Shown here piece after piece: positions 2,874 through 45,834 of a stretch of DNA of 58,215 bases. This stretch comes from an uncultured bacterium. Its GTDB lineage: Bacteria > Cyanobacteriota > Vampirovibrionia > Gastranaerophilales > Gastranaerophilaceae. Under the pieces are notes generated by a model, which saw nothing but the letters and a program-made list of their open reading frames with translations, searched no databases and was not told the DNA's origin. A program made the position numbers and the translations under genes. The stretch lies in contig CASDOW010000013.1 in the NCBI GenBank assembly GCA_949282195.1, positions 1 through 58,215 on the forward strand, written 5' to 3'. The stretch's first letter is position 1. Each line of letters begins with the position of its first letter.

Positions 2874-3806
2874 ATGAAAGTTAGTGTTAAAACTCCGGCT
2901 ACAATAGCAAACCTTGGACCAGGATTTGATTCTTTTGGTTTAGCCTTGCCGTTATATAATGTTGTTTCTGTTGAAGAAACCGTCCTTCCGGGGTCAGGAA
3001 TTGAAATCAACATAATAAATGAAAAAAATAATGAAAAATCAGAATTGGCAGATGTTCCAACTGATAAAACAAATATTGTCTATAAGGCAATAGAATTATT
3101 ATACAATTTTATAGGGCAAGTGCCTAATGAGCTTAAAATTACAATTAAAACCCAAATTCCAATTTCAAGAGGACTGGGCTCATCTTCTTCTGTTATTGTG
3201 GGCGGTTTAATTGCGGCAAATGAGCTTTTAGGCAGACCTGCCGATGAAAAAGTTTTAATGTCTATCGCAACAGAAATTGAAGGACATCCTGATAATATTA
3301 CTCCTGCTTTTGTTGGCGGAATTACAATGTCATCTTGGGAAGATGACGGTTCTGTTGTGTATCGTAAATTACCTTGGAATGATGATTGGAAATTAATGGT
3401 TTGCATTCCTGATTATGAATTAAATACAGAAATTTCTCGTTCAGTTCTACCAAAAGAAGTTCCGATGTCATCTGCTATTCATAATCTGAAAAGAAGTGCA
3501 ATGTTTGTTGATGCACTGTATAGTAAAGATGAAGAGCTTTTAAAATTAGCTCTAAAAGATAAGCTTCATCAGCCTTACAGGGAAAAATTAGTCCCCGGTT
3601 TATCTGATATTATTAACAATCTAAAACACATAAATGGTGTAATCGGTACTGTATTATGTGGCGCAGGACCTGCAATTTTAGTTATTTATAATGGAATTGG
3701 GGTTGGTGAAATAAAAGAAGTTGTTTCTAACAGCTGGAATTATTTTAATGTTGAAACTAACTTTTTAAATTTACCGATTGAAAAACAAGGTGCAGTTATT
3801 TTATAG
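2874..3806 (+). CDS. thrB: Homoserine kinase
   Basis: A 310-residue GHMP kinase. It has the N-terminal PATIANLGPGFDSFGLAL segment, the glycine/serine-rich ATP loop SRGLGSSSSVIVGG (residues 98-111), and a late CGAGPAI motif. This combination is typical of ThrB, which phosphorylates homoserine on the way to threonine. Length is normal. A weak AGGGA ribosome site lies before ATG 2874. No other threonine gene is adjacent; it lies between dnaN and mnmG. Confidence 0.93.
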   Translation: MKVSVKTPATIANLGPGFDSFGLALPLYNVVSVEETVLPGSGIEINIINEKNNEKSELADVPTDKTNIVYKAIELLYNFIGQVPNELKITIKTQIPISRGLGSSSSVIVGGLIAANELLGRPADEKVLMSIATEIEGHPDNITPAFVGGITMSSWEDDGSVVYRKLPWNDDWKLMVCIPDYELNTEISRSVLPKEVPMSSAIHNLKRSAMFVDALYSKDEELLKLALKDKLHQPYREKLVPGLSDIINNLKHINGVIGTVLCGAGPAILVIYNGIGVGEIKEVVSNSWNYFNVETNFLNLPIEKQGAVIL

Positions 3807-3830
3807 TGCGCTAAAGGAATGGTTAAATAA

Positions 3831-5741
3831 ATGTTATATAATCTTTTTAAGTTTGATTGTATTGTCGTGGGCGCAGGTCATGCCGGCGTTGAAGCTGCAA
3901 TAAGTGCTTCAAGATTAGGGCTTAAAACTCTTTTAACTACTTTAAATATTGATAATATTGCACTTATGCCTTGTAACCCCGCTATTGGAGGACCTGCTAA
4001 ATCAAATCTTGTTAGAGAAATAGATGCTCTAGGCGGAGTCATGGGTGAATTGGCAGATTCAACTTATATGCAATTAAAAACTCTTAACTCATCCAAAGGT
4101 CCTGCTGTTAGAGCGCTAAGAGCGCAATCAGATAAAAAAGAGTATAGATACGCCGCAAGACATTTGGTTGAACAACAAGAAAATTTAACCCTTAAACAAA
4201 CTCAAATTGTAGATTTGATTGTTGAAAAAAATGAAATAAAAGGTGTAGTCGATGAACTTGGTATTGAATATTATGCACCAACCGTTATTTTAACTACAGG
4301 AACAAGTCTTGAGGGTCGAATTTTTATTGGTTTAAAATCTTTTCAAGCCGGAAGACTTGGGGAAAGAAGCGCAAATGGTTTATCAAATAAACTAAGAGAG
4401 CTTGGTTTAAACGTTCGAAAATTAAAAACAGGAACTCCTGCAAGAGTTGACGGAAGAACGATTGATTATTCAAAACTTGAGCTTCATCCGGGGGATGAAA
4501 TAATTGACGGAATGCCTCGATTTTTTAGCTACAAACCCAACCGCCCGATAAGAAAACAATATCCTTGTTATTTAACAAAAACAAATGAAAGAACTCATCA
4601 AATAATTAAAGAAAATCTTCAATATTCACCTTTATATCGAGGTTTAATAACAGGAGTCGGTCCCAGATATTGCCCAAGCATTGAAGATAAAGTGGTTAGA
4701 TTTAGCCATAATCCTTCACACCATATTTTTATCGAGCCTGAAGGAGTGGATACTTATGAAGTTTATATTCAAGGGTTTTCAACCTCACTACCGATTGAAG
4801 CACAATTTCAAATGATACATTCGCTTTCAGGTTTAGAAAATGTATCAGTTATAAAACCCGCCTATGCTGTTGAATATGATAGCGTATGTGCGCTTGAATT
4901 AGATAACGGTTTAATGACTAAAAAAAACAAAGGTTTATTTTTGGCAGGTCAAATAAATGGAACCTCAGGTTATGAAGAAGCTGCAGCCCAAGGGCTTGTG
5001 GCAGGAATTAACGCTAAAAATTATCTTGATAAAAAAGAATATATTGAATTAACCCGTTCAAATTCATATATCGGGACTTTAATTGATGATTTAATTACAA
5101 AAGATATTGATGAACCATATAGAATGTTAACATCAAGAAGTGAATACAGATTAATCTTAAGACAAGATAACGCTGATTTAAGATTAATGGAATTAGGATA
5201 CAAAACAGGGCTTGTAAAAGAATCAGATATTCAAAGAAAAAGATTGAAAGAAGCAGAAATTGATAAACTAATTGAAAATTTAAAAGAATTTAAAATTAGT
5301 GCAAATGAAAAAAATAAAGAAATTTTATCAAAATATAATGAAGCATTGGAGCTTGGAACAAATGGCTTTAATATTTTAAAAAGACCGAATGTAGATTTTA
5401 AAATATTAAAAGAATTAGGTTATAAATCAAGAGTTAATTCTCCTGACAATTATTTAACAAGAGATATAGAAGAACAAGCTGAAATTTTAATCAAATATGA
5501 CGGATATATTAAGCGGCAGTTAGATCAAATTGATAAACAAATTAAAACGGATGAAATAAGAATTCCTGATGATATTGATTATAATGCAATTAAACAAATA
5601 TCAACAGAATCAAAAGAAAAGCTGAATAAAATAAGACCTAAAACCATAGGTCAAGCGCTTAGAATAGGCGGAGTTAAACCCGCAGATGTTTCTGTATTAA
5701 TGGTTTTAATAGAACAACATAGAATTTCAAGAGTTAATTAA
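3831..5741 (+). CDS. mnmG: tRNA uridine-5-carboxymethylaminomethyl synthesis enzyme MnmG (GidA)
   Basis: A 636-residue protein with the FAD-binding start [15 protein letters not shown] (residues 9-23) and the MnmG hallmarks [35 protein letters not shown] and [12 protein letters not shown]. The C-terminal domain ends in RVN. With MnmE it modifies the wobble uridine of certain tRNAs. It starts 24 bp after thrB. A tiny ORF (ATG GTT AAA TAA, 3819-3830) abuts the start codon. The stop codon is shared by palindrome with convergent kdsA, an 8-bp overlap. Confidence 0.97.
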
Positions 5742-6549
5742 CAAGCTTAAAGATTTTGTTGCAAATATCAAAAGTTTCTTCGCAACTGTCGAGTTTAAGC
5801 ATGTTATCCCCGTCGCAAAGTGCACAATCGGGGTTTGGATGAATTTCAAAAAACAAACATTTTGCCCCTGCTGCAATAGCTGCTTTAGCTAATAAAGGTA
5901 CAAATTTCCTTTCCCCTGCTGAACTTGCGCCATGACCTCCTGGTATTTGTACGCTATGAGTAGCATCAAAAACTAAAGGATAACCAAGTTCATCTTGAAT
6001 AATTTGAACACCTCTCATATCAACTACAAGATTGTTATAGCCAAATGATGTTCCTCTATCTGTTATTAAGATTTTATCGTTTCCTGAATCTATTACTTTT
6101 TGAGCTATTGATTTCATTTGATAAGGTGATAAAAATTGACCTTTTTTAATGTTTACAATTTTCCCTGTTTTAGCTGCTGCAACAAGCAGGTCTGTTTGTC
6201 TACATAAAAAAGCAGGAATTTGAATAATATCAGCAACTTTAGCTGTAATATCAGCTTGAGAAGCTTCATGGATATCTGTAACTATTGGTAAATCTAATTC
6301 TTTTTTAACTTTAGCTAAGATTTCCAATCCTTTTTCAATTCCTAAACCTCTATATGAATTTAGTGATGAACGGTTTGCTTTATCAAAAGAGGTTTTAAAG
6401 ACAAAATTAATATCTAATTTAGTGCAAATTTCTTTTAATTTTTTAGCAGTGGTTAGTGTTATTTCTTCGCTTTCCATAGCACAAGGACCTGCTAAAATTG
6501 TCAGTTTATCTTTTCCGATTTCAAAATTATTAAGTGTTAGAGTTTTCAT
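5734..6549 (-). CDS. kdsA: 3-deoxy-8-phosphooctulonate (KDO-8-P) synthase
   Basis: The 271-residue protein begins with [14 protein letters not shown] and continues with [64 protein letters not shown] and [11 protein letters not shown]. These are the KdsA motifs that bind PEP and arabinose-5-phosphate. It makes KDO-8-P for LPS inner core, so the organism is expected to have a Gram-negative outer membrane. The gene points against mnmG and overlaps it at the palindrome GTTAATTAAC (5733-5742); both proteins end in Val-Asn. No other kds or lpx genes are adjacent. Confidence 0.96.
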
Positions 6550-6599
6550 AGATTTTATTATATAATAATAATTAATATTAGGGAAGTGAGGAAAAGTTT

Positions 6600-7679
6600 A
6601 TGTGCGCAGCACCGACAAAAGAAATTGACGAAAAAGAGCAAAAAGCCATCCAAGAAGGAAAAAATAAAGCGCTAAAATTAGCATTGGATAAAATTGAGAA
6701 AGATTTTGGAAAAGGTTCAATTATGCGTCTTGGTGACAAATCAAGCGTTAATTGCGAGTGTATTCCGACAGGTTCACTTGCTTTAGATATTGCGCTTGGA
6801 ATTGGCGGTGTACCAAGAGGAAGAATAATTGAAATCTATGGCCCTGAATCATCAGGTAAAACAACTTTAGCACAGCACATTGTTGCAAATGCGCAGAAAA
6901 AAGGTGGAATTGCTGCTTTTATTGATGCTGAGCATGCACTTGACCCTGAATATGCAAGAAACTTAGGAGTTGATGTTGATCAATTATTAATTTCTCAACC
7001 TGATACTGGTGAACAAGCATTAGAAATTGCTGAAGAATTAGTTCGTTCAGGCGCTATTGATGTTATTGTAATAGATTCGGTTGCAGCACTAGTCCCTAAA
7101 GCAGAAATTGAAAAAGCTATGGATGAACAGCAAATGGGTTTACAAGCTCGTTTAATGTCAAAAGCATTAAGAAAATTAACGGGTATTGTAGGTAAAACAA
7201 ATACAACCGTTATTTTCATCAACCAATTAAGACAAAAAATCGGTATAATGTTTGGAAACCCTGAAACTACCACAGGCGGTAATGCACTAAAATATTACGC
7301 TTCAGTTCGTCTTGATATAAGAAGATGTGATAGTGTAAAAAATAAAGATAATGAAGATATAGGTAACAGAGTTCGTGTAAAAGTTGCTAAAAATAAAGTT
7401 GCTCCTCCTTTTAAAGTTGCTGAGTTTGATATTATATATGGCAAGGGAATTTGTGCCTTAGGTAATATAATTGATGTTGCAGTTAATTTTGATATCATTA
7501 AAAAAGCAGGTGCATGGTTTAGCTATAATGATGAAAAATTAGGTCAAGGCAGAGAAAAAGCAAAAGAATTTTTAGAACAAAACCCTGATATTTTAGCTGA
7601 AATTGAAACAAAAGTTAGAGAAAAAATAGCTTCTAAAAATAAACCTCAACAAGAAATTGAAAACAAGGAAGAAAAATAG
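6600..7679 (+). CDS. recA: Recombinase RecA
   Basis: 359 residues. It has Walker [10 protein letters not shown] (residues 80-88), [10 protein letters not shown] for Walker B, the L1/L2 DNA-binding segments ([40 protein letters not shown]), and the C-terminal GKG...[10 protein letters not shown] region. The start at ATG 6600 is supported by a good ribosome site (GTGAGGAAAAG) just upstream. A TATAAT-like hexamer at 6561-6566 may be its -10 element. No LexA-type box was recognised by eye. rfbA starts on the base after its stop, so the two genes are probably co-transcribed. Confidence 0.98.
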
Positions 7680-42482: not shown

Positions 42483-42539
42483 ATATAATTTTCTTTTGTT
42501 GAGTTGAAATGGCTTTAAGTAACAAATAATTAACCACGT

Positions 42540-42567
42540 TTGCTAGGTTGCTGTGGCAACCTAGCAA
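42540..42567. promoter_or_regulatory. Strong 12-bp hairpin between the sigma-factor and HTH genes
   Basis: TTGCTAGGTTGC pairs perfectly with GCAACCTAGCAA around a TGTG loop. It is not followed by a T-run, so it is either a stem-only terminator or an operator/RNA element. It is 26 bp before the next start. Confidence 0.55.
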
Positions 42568-42593
42568 TATTAATTTACACCTAAAATTAAAAT

Positions 42594-42872
42594 ATGCAAC
42601 ACAAGTCTAAAAATAATATTATATTAATTAAGACGCTTGGAGATATTATTAAAACCCATAGAAAACTAACCAAAAAATCTATTTATAAAATTTCTGCCGA
42701 GATTTTTATGTCTAAATCCACATGGAGAGAGGCAGAATTGGGTGTTTGTAAAGATATAAATTTAACAACGCTCTGGAAAATTGCAGAGGGTTTAGATATT
42801 ACACCATATCAATTATTAAAAGAAGTGCAGGAAAAATTAGGAAAAGATTTTTCATTGGTAGAATTAGATTAA
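42594..42872 (+). CDS. XRE-like helix-turn-helix protein
   Basis: A 92-residue protein with an HTH_3-like core (LGDIIKTHRKLTKKSIYKISAEIFMSKSTWREAELG...LTTLWKIAEGLDITPYQLLKEV). No ribosome site precedes the ATG. The neighbours are a sigma factor and a PLP enzyme; a regulatory link is not shown. Confidence 0.75.
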   Translation: MQHKSKNNIILIKTLGDIIKTHRKLTKKSIYKISAEIFMSKSTWREAELGVCKDINLTTLWKIAEGLDITPYQLLKEVQEKLGKDFSLVELD

Positions 42873-42947
42873 AACCTTAAACCCCCCTACTTAATAGCAT
42901 AAAATTTTTTTAATGCTAAAATTGTCTTATTGAAAAGGAATAAGACA

Positions 42948-44207
42948 ATGGAAGATTTAAAACAAGAAGCAAATGAAATTGTTGAAAATGCACAAAATTC
43001 AATTAAAGATATTTTTGAATATATTGATAACATAACAGAATACAATCAAAAAAAGGTTTTAGACGCTTTTTATAATAATAAAATCGGCGAAGAACATTTT
43101 TACACAGTAACAGGTTACGGTCATGATGATATGGGAAGAGAAGCTCTGGATAGGGTTTTTGCTGATACTTTTAAAACAGAAGCCGCAATTGTAAGACCTC
43201 ATTTTGTTTCAGGTTCTCACACTATAGCTTGCGCTTTATTTGGCGTTTTAAGATATGGCGATAGGCTTGTTTCTATTGCAGGAGAACCCTATGACACCAT
43301 GCAGCAAATTATAGGATGTAGAAAAAATTGTGATGATTTTGATACAAGCTTAATGGGTCATGGGGTAAAATATTCTGAAATTCCTTTAAAAGACGGGCTG
43401 GATGTAGATTATGAAAATATTGAAAAATATCTTTTACCTGATACAAAAATGGTCCTAATTCAACGCTCAAGAGGCTATTCACTTAGAAAACCTTTATCTA
43501 TAGCTGATATTGAAAAAATAATTAAAATTGTCAAAGCTAAAAACCCTGAAATATGCTGTTTTGTTGATAATTGCTATGGAGAATTTATTGAAAAACAAGA
43601 ACCAACTGAAATTGGAGTAGATTTAATTGCAGGGAGCTTAATCAAAAACCCAGGCGGCGGCATTGTTGAAGCAGGAGGATATATTGCAGGTAAGAAAAAA
43701 TATGTTGATATGGCTGCAAGACGATTAACTGCCCCCGGAATTGGAGCAGAAGGCGGTGCTATGCACAATCAAACAAGAATAATGCTTCAAGGGTTTTTTA
43801 TGGCGCCTTCTATTACTTCAAATGCTCATAAAGGCGCAATTTTGGCGGCAAAAGTCTTTGAAGATATGGGTTTTGTCACTTTCCCGTCATCAAAAACAAA
43901 AAGAACGGATATTATTCAAACTATTCAATTTAATAATGAAAAAGAACAACAGGCATTTTGCGCTATGGTACAAAGATATTCGCCTGTTGAAAGTTATTTA
44001 ACACCAATCCCTGATACGGTTCCGGGGTATGATTGTAATCTTTTAATGGCAGGGGGTAGTTTTATTGAAGGTTCAACCATTGAATTATCAGCAGACGGCC
44101 CCACAAGAGAGCCTTGGGCAATATATATGCAGGGCGGATTAAGTTATTTTCACGTTAAAATTGCCCTAAAAGGCATAGTAGAAAACCTTTTGAAGCTTGA
44201 GCTTTAG
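42948..44207 (+). CDS. Alum_res/methionine gamma-lyase-like PLP enzyme
   Basis: The 419-residue protein starts at ATG 42948 because AAAAGGA is 8 bp before it; a TTG six codons earlier lacks support. It is a fold-type I PLP protein of the aluminium-resistance (YnbB) family: YTVTGYGHDDMGREALDRVFADTF, VRPHFVSGSHTIACALFGVLRYGD, and GSLIKNPGGG with the likely PLP lysine. Relatives are listed as cystathionine/methionine gamma-lyase-like. The true reaction is not established. It is the last ordinary gene before the accessory region. Confidence 0.87.
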   Translation: MEDLKQEANEIVENAQNSIKDIFEYIDNITEYNQKKVLDAFYNNKIGEEHFYTVTGYGHDDMGREALDRVFADTFKTEAAIVRPHFVSGSHTIACALFGVLRYGDRLVSIAGEPYDTMQQIIGCRKNCDDFDTSLMGHGVKYSEIPLKDGLDVDYENIEKYLLPDTKMVLIQRSRGYSLRKPLSIADIEKIIKIVKAKNPEICCFVDNCYGEFIEKQEPTEIGVDLIAGSLIKNPGGGIVEAGGYIAGKKKYVDMAARRLTAPGIGAEGGAMHNQTRIMLQGFFMAPSITSNAHKGAILAAKVFEDMGFVTFPSSKTKRTDIIQTIQFNNEKEQQAFCAMVQRYSPVESYLTPIPDTVPGYDCNLLMAGGSFIEGSTIELSADGPTREPWAIYMQGGLSYFHVKIALKGIVENLLKLEL

Positions 44208-44303: not shown

Positions 44304-44400
44304 CGATGCCCACAATCCCTTAGCGAACTTGTGAGCTTTAGGGATTGGAAACACCCTTGGGGTGCGTTTCAAATTTTTGCCGTAGGCGAATTTGACAGGA
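44304..44400. repeat. Left arm of a 97-bp inverted repeat in GC-richer spacer
   Basis: 44304-44400 (starts CGATGCCCACAATCCC) matches the reverse complement of 45738-45834 with 3 mismatches in 97. The spacer 44208-44500 is GC-richer and also holds palindromic pieces seen elsewhere in the window: 44406-44433 is the reverse of 742-765, and 44451-44485 is a copy of 702-737. The frame running through this DNA (44268-44681) seems to be repeat DNA, not a gene. Confidence 0.85.
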
Positions 44401-44503
44401 ACAAAAAGCGTAAGCATAATTTTCTGTTCTCTTTGAGCGGTTCAGAGTCTTACCAACATGCAAGGTTTACTTGTAACCTTATAAAAAAGTTTAATTATAC
44501 AAA

Positions 44504-44842
44504 TTATTTTAAAGCTAAAATAGATTTTATAACATTTGCAATTATAGTTTGTTCTTTTTCGGTTGCGGTTTTTACAAGTTCACAAATCACATTAGGATTA
44601 TTTTCCATTTCCACAAAAACAAATAATTTATATATTTCTATTCCCAAAGCCTCAGCCAGTGAAGGTATTTTTGAAAAATGAATTGAATTTTTACCTCTTT
44701 CAATATAGCCTATGGTGTTTGGAGCAACACCTGCCTTTTCAGCCAATTGTTCTTGGGTTAATTTAGCCAATTTTCTATAATATTTAACATTTTGACCAAA
44801 TTTCTTTTTAAAATCATTCATATAGTAATTATGCAATATCAA
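44504..44842 (-). CDS. XRE-family helix-turn-helix regulator (second gene of pair)
   Basis: 112 residues, or 105 from ATG 44821 (MNDFKKKFGQNVKYYRKLAKLTQEQLAEKAGVAPNTIGYIERG...FSKIPSLAEALGIEIYKLFVF). The TTG 44842 start overlaps the stop of the upstream XRE gene as TTGA. The C-terminal half is a short helical part of unknown role. Paired XRE genes suggest a repressor/antirepressor or an antitoxin-like arrangement with the divergent gene at 45265. Confidence 0.83.
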   Translation of the reverse strand: MILHNYYMNDFKKKFGQNVKYYRKLAKLTQEQLAEKAGVAPNTIGYIERGKNSIHFSKIPSLAEALGIEIYKLFVFVEMENNPNVICELVKTATEKEQTIIANVIKSILALK

Positions 44843-45198
44843 TCAACTTTAGTAATATCGAGCATTTTGCTTAACATTTCATATATTAAACCCAATTGAG
44901 TACGACTAGCAGATTTCAGAAGATTATTAATAGAATTAATTGTTTTTTCATCAGTTTTTGCTTCACGAGCTATAAAGAATTTATATAGTTCTATTTCTAA
45001 TGTATCGGCTATTTTACTCAATAAAGTCAACGATATTCTATCTTTGCCAATCTCACAATGTCCTATTGTAGATGTTTCGCAACCAACTTTTTCGGCAAGT
45101 TCTGCTTGTGTATATCCGGCGTTCACTCTTAATTCTCTAAGTCTTGCACCTATTTGTTTATCTAATTTTGTTCCCATATAAATTATTATCCTTTTCAT
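44839..45198 (-). CDS. XRE-family helix-turn-helix regulator (first gene of pair)
   Basis: 119 residues, with the more probable start at ATG 45177 (MGTKLDKQIGARLRELRVNAGYTQAELAEKVGCETSTIGHCEIGKDRISLTLLSKIADTLEIELYKFFIA). The C-terminal part is helical. It is divergent from the secreted-protein gene by 66 bp, so it is placed to control it. It overlaps the second XRE gene by 4 bp. Confidence 0.85.
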   Translation of the reverse strand: MKRIIIYMGTKLDKQIGARLRELRVNAGYTQAELAEKVGCETSTIGHCEIGKDRISLTLLSKIADTLEIELYKFFIAREAKTDEKTINSINNLLKSASRTQLGLIYEMLSKMLDITKVD

Positions 45199-45264
45199 TT
45201 AAAGCTAATTAAATGTTAAATATACTAATTAATATGGGTATATTTTCATGATATAATTATCTGT

Positions 45265-45720
45265 ATGAAAAAGATATTAATAATTATTTTCATTATTCTA
45301 TTAACTACATGTGTATTTGCTTATGAAAACTACACTACAATTAAAATCCTCTCTCATAAACACAATGAAATGAGCTATCAAATAGCTTGGTGTAGGGCGC
45401 ATAATGGAATAATAGAATATGAAAATTTTGATAAGACAAGAGTTGATTGTTTAACAGAATTACACGCTGTTGAATTTGATTTTTATAATAAATGGGCAGA
45501 AAGTATAGGACAAGCTCTTTATTATGGTTTTATGACAGGTAAAAGACCAAAAGTTGTGTTAATTTTAGAAAATCCAAAAATGCAAATAATTTACTATAAT
45601 AGAATTTCAAAGTTATCTGAAATTTATAATTTTGATGTTGAATATGTAACAAATGATATTTTAAATCTTGATAAAAATGGAAAGTGTTTTAATAAAAAAT
45701 GTAAGTGTTATAGACTCTAA
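45265..45720 (+). CDS. Secreted small protein with nuclease-like residues
   Basis: A 151-residue protein with a signal peptide (MKKILIIIFIILLTTCVFA). The mature part has HNEMSYQIAWCRAHNGIIEYENFDKTRVDCLTELHAVEFDFYNKWAESIGQALYYGF. The spacing of RVD, AVEFD, NKW and IGQ resembles PD-(D/E)xK nuclease-like proteins found in mobile DNA of other bacteria, but exact catalytic residues are not certain. It ends in a Cys-rich tail (CFNKKCKCYRL). It is preceded by a divergent XRE gene. Base composition is AT-rich like the genes nearby. The function is unknown. Confidence 0.65.
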   Translation: MKKILIIIFIILLTTCVFAYENYTTIKILSHKHNEMSYQIAWCRAHNGIIEYENFDKTRVDCLTELHAVEFDFYNKWAESIGQALYYGFMTGKRPKVVLILENPKMQIIYYNRISKLSEIYNFDVEYVTNDILNLDKNGKCFNKKCKCYRL

Positions 45721-45737
45721 ACTTCGCTTAATATTGC

Positions 45738-45834
45738 TCCTGTAAAATTTGCCTACGGCAAGAATTTGAAACGCACCCCAAGGGTGTTTCCAATCCCTAA
45801 AGCTCACAAGTTCGCTAAGGGATTGTGGGCATCG
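45738..45834. repeat. Right arm of the 97-bp inverted repeat and following repeat-rich spacer
   Basis: It matches the reverse complement of 44304-44400 at 94 of 97 positions. The spacer through 46150 is GC-richer and rich in hairpins; 45973-46005 is the reverse complement of 14104-14136, and about 46087-46152 is a diverged relative of 58014-58079. No gene is seen between 45721 and 46200. Confidence 0.85.

What the first reader, a model, noticed from the sequence alone, without database searches (positions are those of the whole stretch)
44304..45834. Cassette bounded by 97-bp inverted repeats: two XRE genes and a secreted nuclease-like protein
Seen: arms 94/97 identical in reverse, with GC-richer flanks around three AT-rich genes. 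The two XRE genes overlap (TTGA), the third gene is divergent with a 66-bp control spacer, and its product has a signal peptide. No transposase is visible. Inferred: a small, possibly non-autonomous mobile element or a defence/competition cassette. The exact function is open.
Basis: partly seen in the sequence, partly recalled or inferred. Interest (0 to 1): 0.72.

Follow-up and report, generated by a model that had tools for sequence, protein, structure and literature searches.

The report
Swappable repressor and exported nuclease-like gene pair
The "inverted repeat arms" are just two copies of a common intergenic repeat, but the genes between them belong to a real, previously unnamed accessory module of gut Gastranaerophilales and their Mu-like phages: an exported nuclease-fold protein transcribed away from a DNA-binding repressor that is frequently exchanged for a different one.

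Summary
Observation confirmed: 97/101-bp inverted arms (44304-44404 / 45734-45834) enclose two XRE genes and a divergent exported protein. The mobile-element reading of the arms is wrong. The arm is a mosaic of short GC-rich palindromic modules scattered through the genus (21/28 genomes) without these genes. The same XRE1+gene-3 pair sits at another site in a sister species without the arms, and no target duplication was seen. The genes are the interesting part. Gene 3 belongs to a large family with no Pfam, NCBIfam or PADLOC match. It has a signal-peptide-like N-terminus and a predicted PD-(D/E)XK fold (AlphaFold pLDDT 94; closest NucS, Z 8.8) with invariant E..D..ExD..QxxxY and two cysteines. 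One clade of this family is linked to a divergent XRE/HTH gene (50 of 79 sampled loci; about 1 in control windows). The XRE is exchanged together with its operator: the window carries an XRE2+operator block in a G009-type cassette, and near-identical Mu-like phages carry unrelated XREs before the same gene, in a spot shared with Old/HKD-Snf2 defence-like genes. Most likely: an XRE-repressed exported nuclease acting on incoming DNA. Fold, linkage and swapping are shown by computation; nuclease activity and defence are inferred.

The parts
44304..44404 (.). left arm: copy of a dispersed palindromic mosaic repeat (modules A 44304-44367, B 44365-44416, C 44404-44440)
   Evidence: 97/101 identity to right arm; 17 matches to the arm query in own genome and matches in 21/28 congeneric genomes
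45734..45834 (.). right arm: same repeat, inverted; reads away from gene 3's 3' end just as the left arm reads away from XRE1's 3' end
   Evidence: orientation preference across copies weak
44504..44842 (-). XRE1, Cro/C1-type HTH regulator (likely true start ATG near 44821); 93% DNA identity to the only XRE of the G009 cassette
   Evidence: HTH_3 3e-14
44839..45198 (-). XRE2, second HTH regulator (possible start at 45177); absent from the G009 cassette, paired with diverged gene 3 in G008, G015, G027
   Evidence: HTH_3 2.5e-13
45204..45258 (.). putative XRE2 operator and gene-3 promoter: AAATATAC (45218-45225) / GTATATTT (45238-45245), TATAAT 45252-45257
   Evidence: block conserved in 5 XRE2-type spacers, absent from the G009 XRE1-type spacer; inverted repeat alone p 0.08
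45265..45720 (+). gene 3: exported protein with predicted PD-(D/E)XK (RecB/NucS-like) fold; conserved E35, D61, E70, D72, K76, Q83, Y87, C43, C62; C-terminal Cys tail
42594..42872 (+). orphan 92-aa HTH gene of the type that pairs with gene 3 elsewhere: relic of a second module between sigma factor and lyase
   Evidence: G007 has the same HTH plus divergent gene 3 at this site; G018 and G020 have a clean empty site

Best explanation
The unit is the gene pair, not the armed cassette. An XRE-family repressor controls a divergently transcribed gene for an exported PD-(D/E)XK-fold protein. The repressor binds an operator in the shared spacer and holds the gene down until a signal (infection, DNA entry or damage) relieves it. 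The protein leaves the cytoplasm, is stabilised by a C43-C62 disulfide, and cuts DNA in or beyond the periplasm, lowering phage superinfection or uptake of foreign DNA. Mu-like prophages and other accessory sites spread the module. Repressor and operator are swapped as a block, which keeps co-resident copies from silencing one another. The arms are bystander copies of an intergenic palindromic mosaic repeat. Shown by computation: fold, invariant site, XRE linkage, operator co-inheritance, swapping, presence/absence and phage carriage. Inferred: repression, export, nuclease activity, disulfide, defence role, reason for swapping.
For: Linkage: 50/79 loci have an XRE divergent within 300 bp upstream, none on the same strand, and about 1 in control windows; all XRE-linked members of the tree fall in one clade of 86 (SH-aLRT 96, quick tree). 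Fold: pLDDT 93.7; best VIA-align matches NucS 2vld Z 8.8 rmsd 2.2 over 89, AF1548 8.1, PaqCI 7.1, CdiA-CT 6.0, SfsA, YaeQ. Site: E35, D61, E70, Q83, Y87 invariant where aligned in about 140 members from bacteria and phages. Export: hydrophobic N-terminus in 121/141 members against about 16% of other ORFs. Swapping: window vs G009 gene 3 83% but adjacent XRE 32%; about 25 locus pairs have gene 3 at least 70% identical with unrelated or distant XRE, and 7 show the reverse. Phages L190/L191: flanks 93%, mature gene 3 95%, XRE and signal peptide unrelated. Operator travels with XRE2. Phage cargo neighbours: Old-like, HKD+Snf2 C3a139, PDC-S14, near Mu transposase and GemA. Empty sites.
Against: The catalytic lysine position carries D (E in 3 phage members), so activity is not assured, although BamHI has E there (PMC4081073). 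Foldseek alone gave no significant PDB hit (best E 0.08). 29 clade members with the Cys tail have no adjacent XRE. No direct evidence of repression or of anti-phage activity. Phage members outside the clade are not XRE-linked. The family is not in PADLOC.
Confidence: 0.42

Rival explanations
1. Small non-autonomous transposable cassette whose ends are the 97-101-bp arms, moved in trans.
For: Arms near-identical and inverted; cassette sits at a different site in G009.
Against: Arm modules are dispersed genus-wide without these genes; G009 cassette lacks the arms and its homology ends at the gene ends; no target duplication; lyase and speD are on different contigs in G009, G018, G020 and G007.
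Confidence: 0.04
2. Exported nuclease for competition or scavenging: degrades extracellular DNA of neighbours, biofilm or food, under XRE control.
For: Same fold and export evidence; VIA-align also matches the CdiA-CT nuclease toxin at Z 6.0; no immunity gene would be needed if it never enters the cytoplasm.
Against: Widespread carriage by phages and placement in a spot with defence genes fit defence better; XRE swapping is not obviously explained.
Confidence: 0.2
3. Catalytically dead PD-(D/E)XK-fold protein that binds DNA or a partner in the envelope.
For: Lysine replaced by D; YaeQ and SfsA, also matched at fold level, are not established nucleases (own knowledge).
Against: E, D, E, Q and Y of the RecB-like site conserved across about 140 members; nearly invariant K76 lies four residues after D72.
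Confidence: 0.2
4. Toxin-antitoxin-like addiction module: XRE antitoxin with a toxin that kills when the XRE is lost.
For: XRE1 resembles the Y4mF/HipB-type antitoxin model (TIGR03070, 60 bits, below its 71.65-bit cut-off).
Against: Divergent, not an operon; product carries an export-type N-terminus; XRE partners are often unrelated to one another; members without adjacent XRE exist.
Confidence: 0.1

Closest known systems
PD-(D/E)XK nucleases, RecB-like branch (EndoMS/NucS C-terminal domain)
   Same: core fold (Z 8.8, rmsd 2.2); E..D..E..QxxxY arrangement (NucS site residues from own knowledge)
   Different: no N-terminal DNA-binding domain; has an export signal and conserved cysteines; D in place of the catalytic K
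REP/BIME-type palindromic mosaic repeats (for the arms)
   Same: short GC-rich hairpin modules, mostly intergenic, recombined in mosaics, many copies
   Different: no RAYT (PF01797) in this genome and in 27/28 of the genus; no sequence relation claimed
Restriction-modification control proteins (C proteins) and XRE-controlled defence modules
   Same: small XRE regulator next to a nuclease-fold gene, with a spacer palindrome
   Different: no methyltransferase between the neighbours seen; effector exported; divergent arrangement; regulator not conserved
Prophage accessory defence cargo (superinfection exclusion, Old, Gabija-like loci)
   Same: in Mu-like phages the pair lies in a variable spot shared with Old-like and HKD+Snf2 genes
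   Different: effector exported; family absent from PADLOC

Membership tests
TIR-bounded transposable element (MITE-like) | terminal repeats travel with the cargo | tested here: not met
   G009 cassette lacks arms; arms occur alone
TIR-bounded transposable element (MITE-like) | target-site duplication | tested here: not met
   no duplication outside 44304/45834
REP/BIME-like palindromic repeat (arms) | dispersed, mostly intergenic, palindromic, mosaic | tested here: met
REP/BIME-like palindromic repeat (arms) | associated RAYT transposase | tested here: not met
   no PF01797 in G000
PD-(D/E)XK superfamily | alpha-beta-beta-beta-alpha-beta core | tested here: met
   AF2 order and VIA-align matches to several members of the fold; model only
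PD-(D/E)XK superfamily | D and (D/E)xK catalytic motif | tested here: inconclusive
   D61 and E70 invariant but the K position is D72 (E in 3 phage members); replacement of K is tolerated in the superfamily (BamHI E, PMC4081073)
PD-(D/E)XK superfamily | metal-dependent nuclease activity | not testable with these tools
   needs assay
NucS/EndoMS | N-terminal DNA-binding domain and clamp-binding PIP motif | tested here: not met
   151 aa: signal-like segment plus one domain; two-domain architecture and PIP motif per PMC8228993
Type II toxin-antitoxin | two-gene operon with cytoplasmic toxin | tested here: not met
   divergent genes; export-type N-terminus
Anti-phage defence system | protects against phage | not testable with these tools
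   only context: Mu-like phage cargo in a spot with Old and HKD+Snf2

The most novel reading that the evidence does not exclude
A previously unnamed, phage-borne immune layer outside the cytoplasm: an exported RecB-like nuclease that destroys DNA entering through the envelope, with plug-in repressors exchanged as XRE-operator(-signal peptide) blocks.
Probability: 0.33. Interest if true: 0.8.

Novelty: new variant of a known kind. Interest (0 to 1): 0.56.

Why it matters
It points to a widespread exported nuclease-fold family (178 matching stretches in viral contigs, 514 in bacterial genome contigs) with no entry in the protein-family or defence libraries searched. It also gives a clean natural series in which one effector keeps its sequence while its repressor and operator are replaced, so the question of why accessory genes change repressors can be tested. 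It further warns that near-identical inverted repeats in repeat-rich genomes need not be element ends.

Tried and rejected
Arms as transposon ends: rejected. RAYT mobilisation of the repeats: no RAYT in the genome. Arms as 3'-end signals with fixed orientation: only weak bias (21 vs 9, p 0.04 on one side, not significant on the other). Third gene by sequence in PDB, Pfam, PHROGs, NCBIfam: no credible hit; scorpion-toxin matches are chance Cys patterns in the tail. Foldseek PDB alone: no significant hit. Plasmids: no match. A remembered NucS fragment used as a PDB query matched nothing and was dropped. XRE single-linkage clustering merged all 51 adjacent XREs and was uninformative. The careful tree did not finish; the quick tree was used. 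Literature searches returned no paper on this family or on Gastranaerophilales prophages.

Full report
OBSERVATION. The arms are real. 44304-44404 and the reverse complement of 45734-45834 agree at 97 of 101 bases (the tool extends them to 116 nt at 92%). They are GC-richer (0.475) than the genes between them (0.265) and the window (0.305). Between them lie XRE1 (44504-44842 -), XRE2 (44839-45198 -) and gene 3 (45265-45720 +). The TTGA overlap of the XRE genes rests on a TTG start that the G009 relative does not share; the shared ATG is near 44821.

WHAT THE ARMS ARE. The arm query matches 17 places in the own genome and 21 of 28 congeneric genomes. The matches fall into modules (about 1-64, 62-112, 100-136) that occur alone or in other combinations, mostly between genes and often at contig ends. 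The arm folds as a chain of short hairpins. This is the anatomy of REP/BIME-type palindromic mosaics, but with no RAYT in this genome. Closest orthologue of the cassette: G009:C5, with XRE1 at 93% and gene 3 at 88% DNA identity. It has neither XRE2 nor the arms, and homology ends at the gene ends. G020 has that site without the cassette. So the pair is accessory, and the arms are not its ends. The inverted look may arise because each of two divergent transcription units is followed by the same repeat; an orientation test over 47 copies was only weakly supportive.

ASSEMBLY CAVEAT. The genome is a 73-contig assembly. In the four nearest relatives the lyase (42930-44207) and the speD block (46229-) are on different contigs, and contigs often break at these repeats. 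A mis-join at a 101-bp repeat cannot be excluded. It would change the neighbours, not the module.

GENE 3. Relatives occur in 23 of 28 congeneric genomes, one to four copies each, at varying places, in many sampled members of the same GTDB family, in 514 matching stretches of bacterial genome contigs (the best 80 are mostly Gastranaerophilales, with a few bins labelled otherwise), in 178 viral-contig stretches and in Nitratiruptor, Rhizobium, Salicola and Dulem phages. No Pfam, NCBIfam or PADLOC family fits. AlphaFold2 gives pLDDT 93.7 with order H-E-E-E-H-E-H-E after the signal helix. VIA-align ranks NucS (Z 8.8, rmsd 2.2, 89 residues), AF1548 (8.1), PaqCI (7.1), CdiA-CT (6.0), SfsA and YaeQ, all of the PD-(D/E)XK fold (own knowledge). 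Foldseek alone was not significant, so the assignment rests on the consistency of this list plus the site. Over about 140 members E35, E51, D56, R59, D61, E70, Q83 and Y87 are invariant where aligned; D72 is D or E, and C43 and C62 are nearly invariant. Q83-Y87 gives the QxxxY of RecB-like nucleases. The lysine two after E70 is D, with an almost invariant K76 following. Superfamily precedent: BamHI has E there (PMC4081073). A hydrophobic N-terminus is present in 121 of 141 members against about 16% of other ORFs, so export is likely.

THE PAIR. Of 79 loci with a gene-3 ORF, 50 have an HTH/XRE gene divergent within 300 bp upstream; control windows hold about one. In a quick ML tree of 171 members, all XRE-linked and Cys-tailed members fall in one clade of 86 (SH-aLRT 96), while phage members outside it and the other Gastranaerophilales copies are unlinked. 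Within the clade XREs are unrelated in many cases: 40% of XRE pairs have no BLAST match at 1e-3, while gene 3 has median 59% identity.

REGULATOR EXCHANGE. (a) The window's gene 3 is 83% identical to G009's, but the adjacent XRE is XRE2, 32% identical to XRE1. XRE2 and the spacer block TATATACTAATTTGCATGGGTATATTTT recur in G008, G015 and G027 with gene 3 proteins only about 50% identical to the window's. The G009 spacer lacks the block and becomes alignable only about 10 bp before the start codon. So XRE2 plus operator entered a G009-type cassette between XRE1 and gene 3, or were lost in G009; linkage to the operator favours the first. (b) Mu-like phages L190 and L191 are 93% identical through transposase, MuB-like and early genes, then diverge over XRE, spacer and signal peptide, and rejoin at codon 23 of gene 3 (95% in the mature part). 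(c) In the reverse direction, L115 shares XRE (91-94%) with five loci whose gene 3 is only 56-60% identical; seven such pairs in all. Spacer palindromes are enriched overall (combined p 0.001 over 22 spacers; window alone p 0.08).

A SECOND MODULE IN THE WINDOW. 42594-42872 is a 92-aa HTH gene of the type paired with gene 3 in G007, G008, G012 and phage L191. Between sigma factor and lyase G018 and G020 are empty, G007 has HTH plus gene 3, G009 has an unrelated gene, and the window keeps the HTH and its palindromic spacer but not gene 3.

FUNCTION. Phage carriage, location in a spot shared with Old-like, HKD+Snf2 (C3a139) and PDC-S14 genes in the Mu-like phages, patchy presence, nuclease fold, export signal and divergent repressor together make an inducible exported nuclease acting on incoming DNA the best reading. 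The steps repression, export, cleavage and protection are not shown. A scavenging or competition nuclease and a dead binding protein remain live rivals.

KNOWN OR NEW. Parts are of known kinds (PD-(D/E)XK fold, XRE repressors, palindromic mosaics). The exported RecB-like family without the canonical lysine, its clade-specific XRE coupling and the block exchange of regulators were not found described in the libraries and papers searched, which cover only open-licence papers.

Noticed in passing
42594-42872 and 42515-42593: Orphan HTH gene with palindromic spacer, relic of a second XRE+gene-3 module; presence/absence series among G000, G007, G009, G018, G020.
   Followed up: yes
L190, L191, L192 about 3600-7000: Mu-like phages of Gastranaerophilales have a variable cargo spot after the early genes, holding Old-like, HKD+Snf2, PDC-S14/DUF4357-type and XRE+gene-3 cargo: a likely defence hotspot.
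   Followed up: partly
45252-45265: TATAAT ends 7 bp before the gene-3 ATG with no visible Shine-Dalgarno: possible leaderless mRNA.
   Followed up: no
G000:C27:9403-9834 (L085) and G018 orthologue (L086): Second gene-3 paralogue of this genome without an adjacent divergent XRE.
   Followed up: partly
G020:C11:51088-51211, G007:C50:1867-2046: Decayed gene-3 fragments with stop codons, suggesting turnover of the module.
   Followed up: no
L107 (PP511318.1): Dulem virus 31 is filed under Microviridae although the record is a 35.8-kb circular genome with a CI-type repressor; its taxonomy line looks wrong.
   Followed up: no
viral fold search hits Q6XM53, A0A6G6ADR0: Giant-virus KilA-N proteins and FirrV-1-A34 carry a domain matching the gene-3 model (TM 0.54-0.58): possible eukaryotic-virus relatives of this fold.
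   Followed up: no
G000:C26:463-948, G000:C44:9323-9838: Two Mu-type transposase genes in the window's own genome, so Mu-like elements are resident.
   Followed up: no
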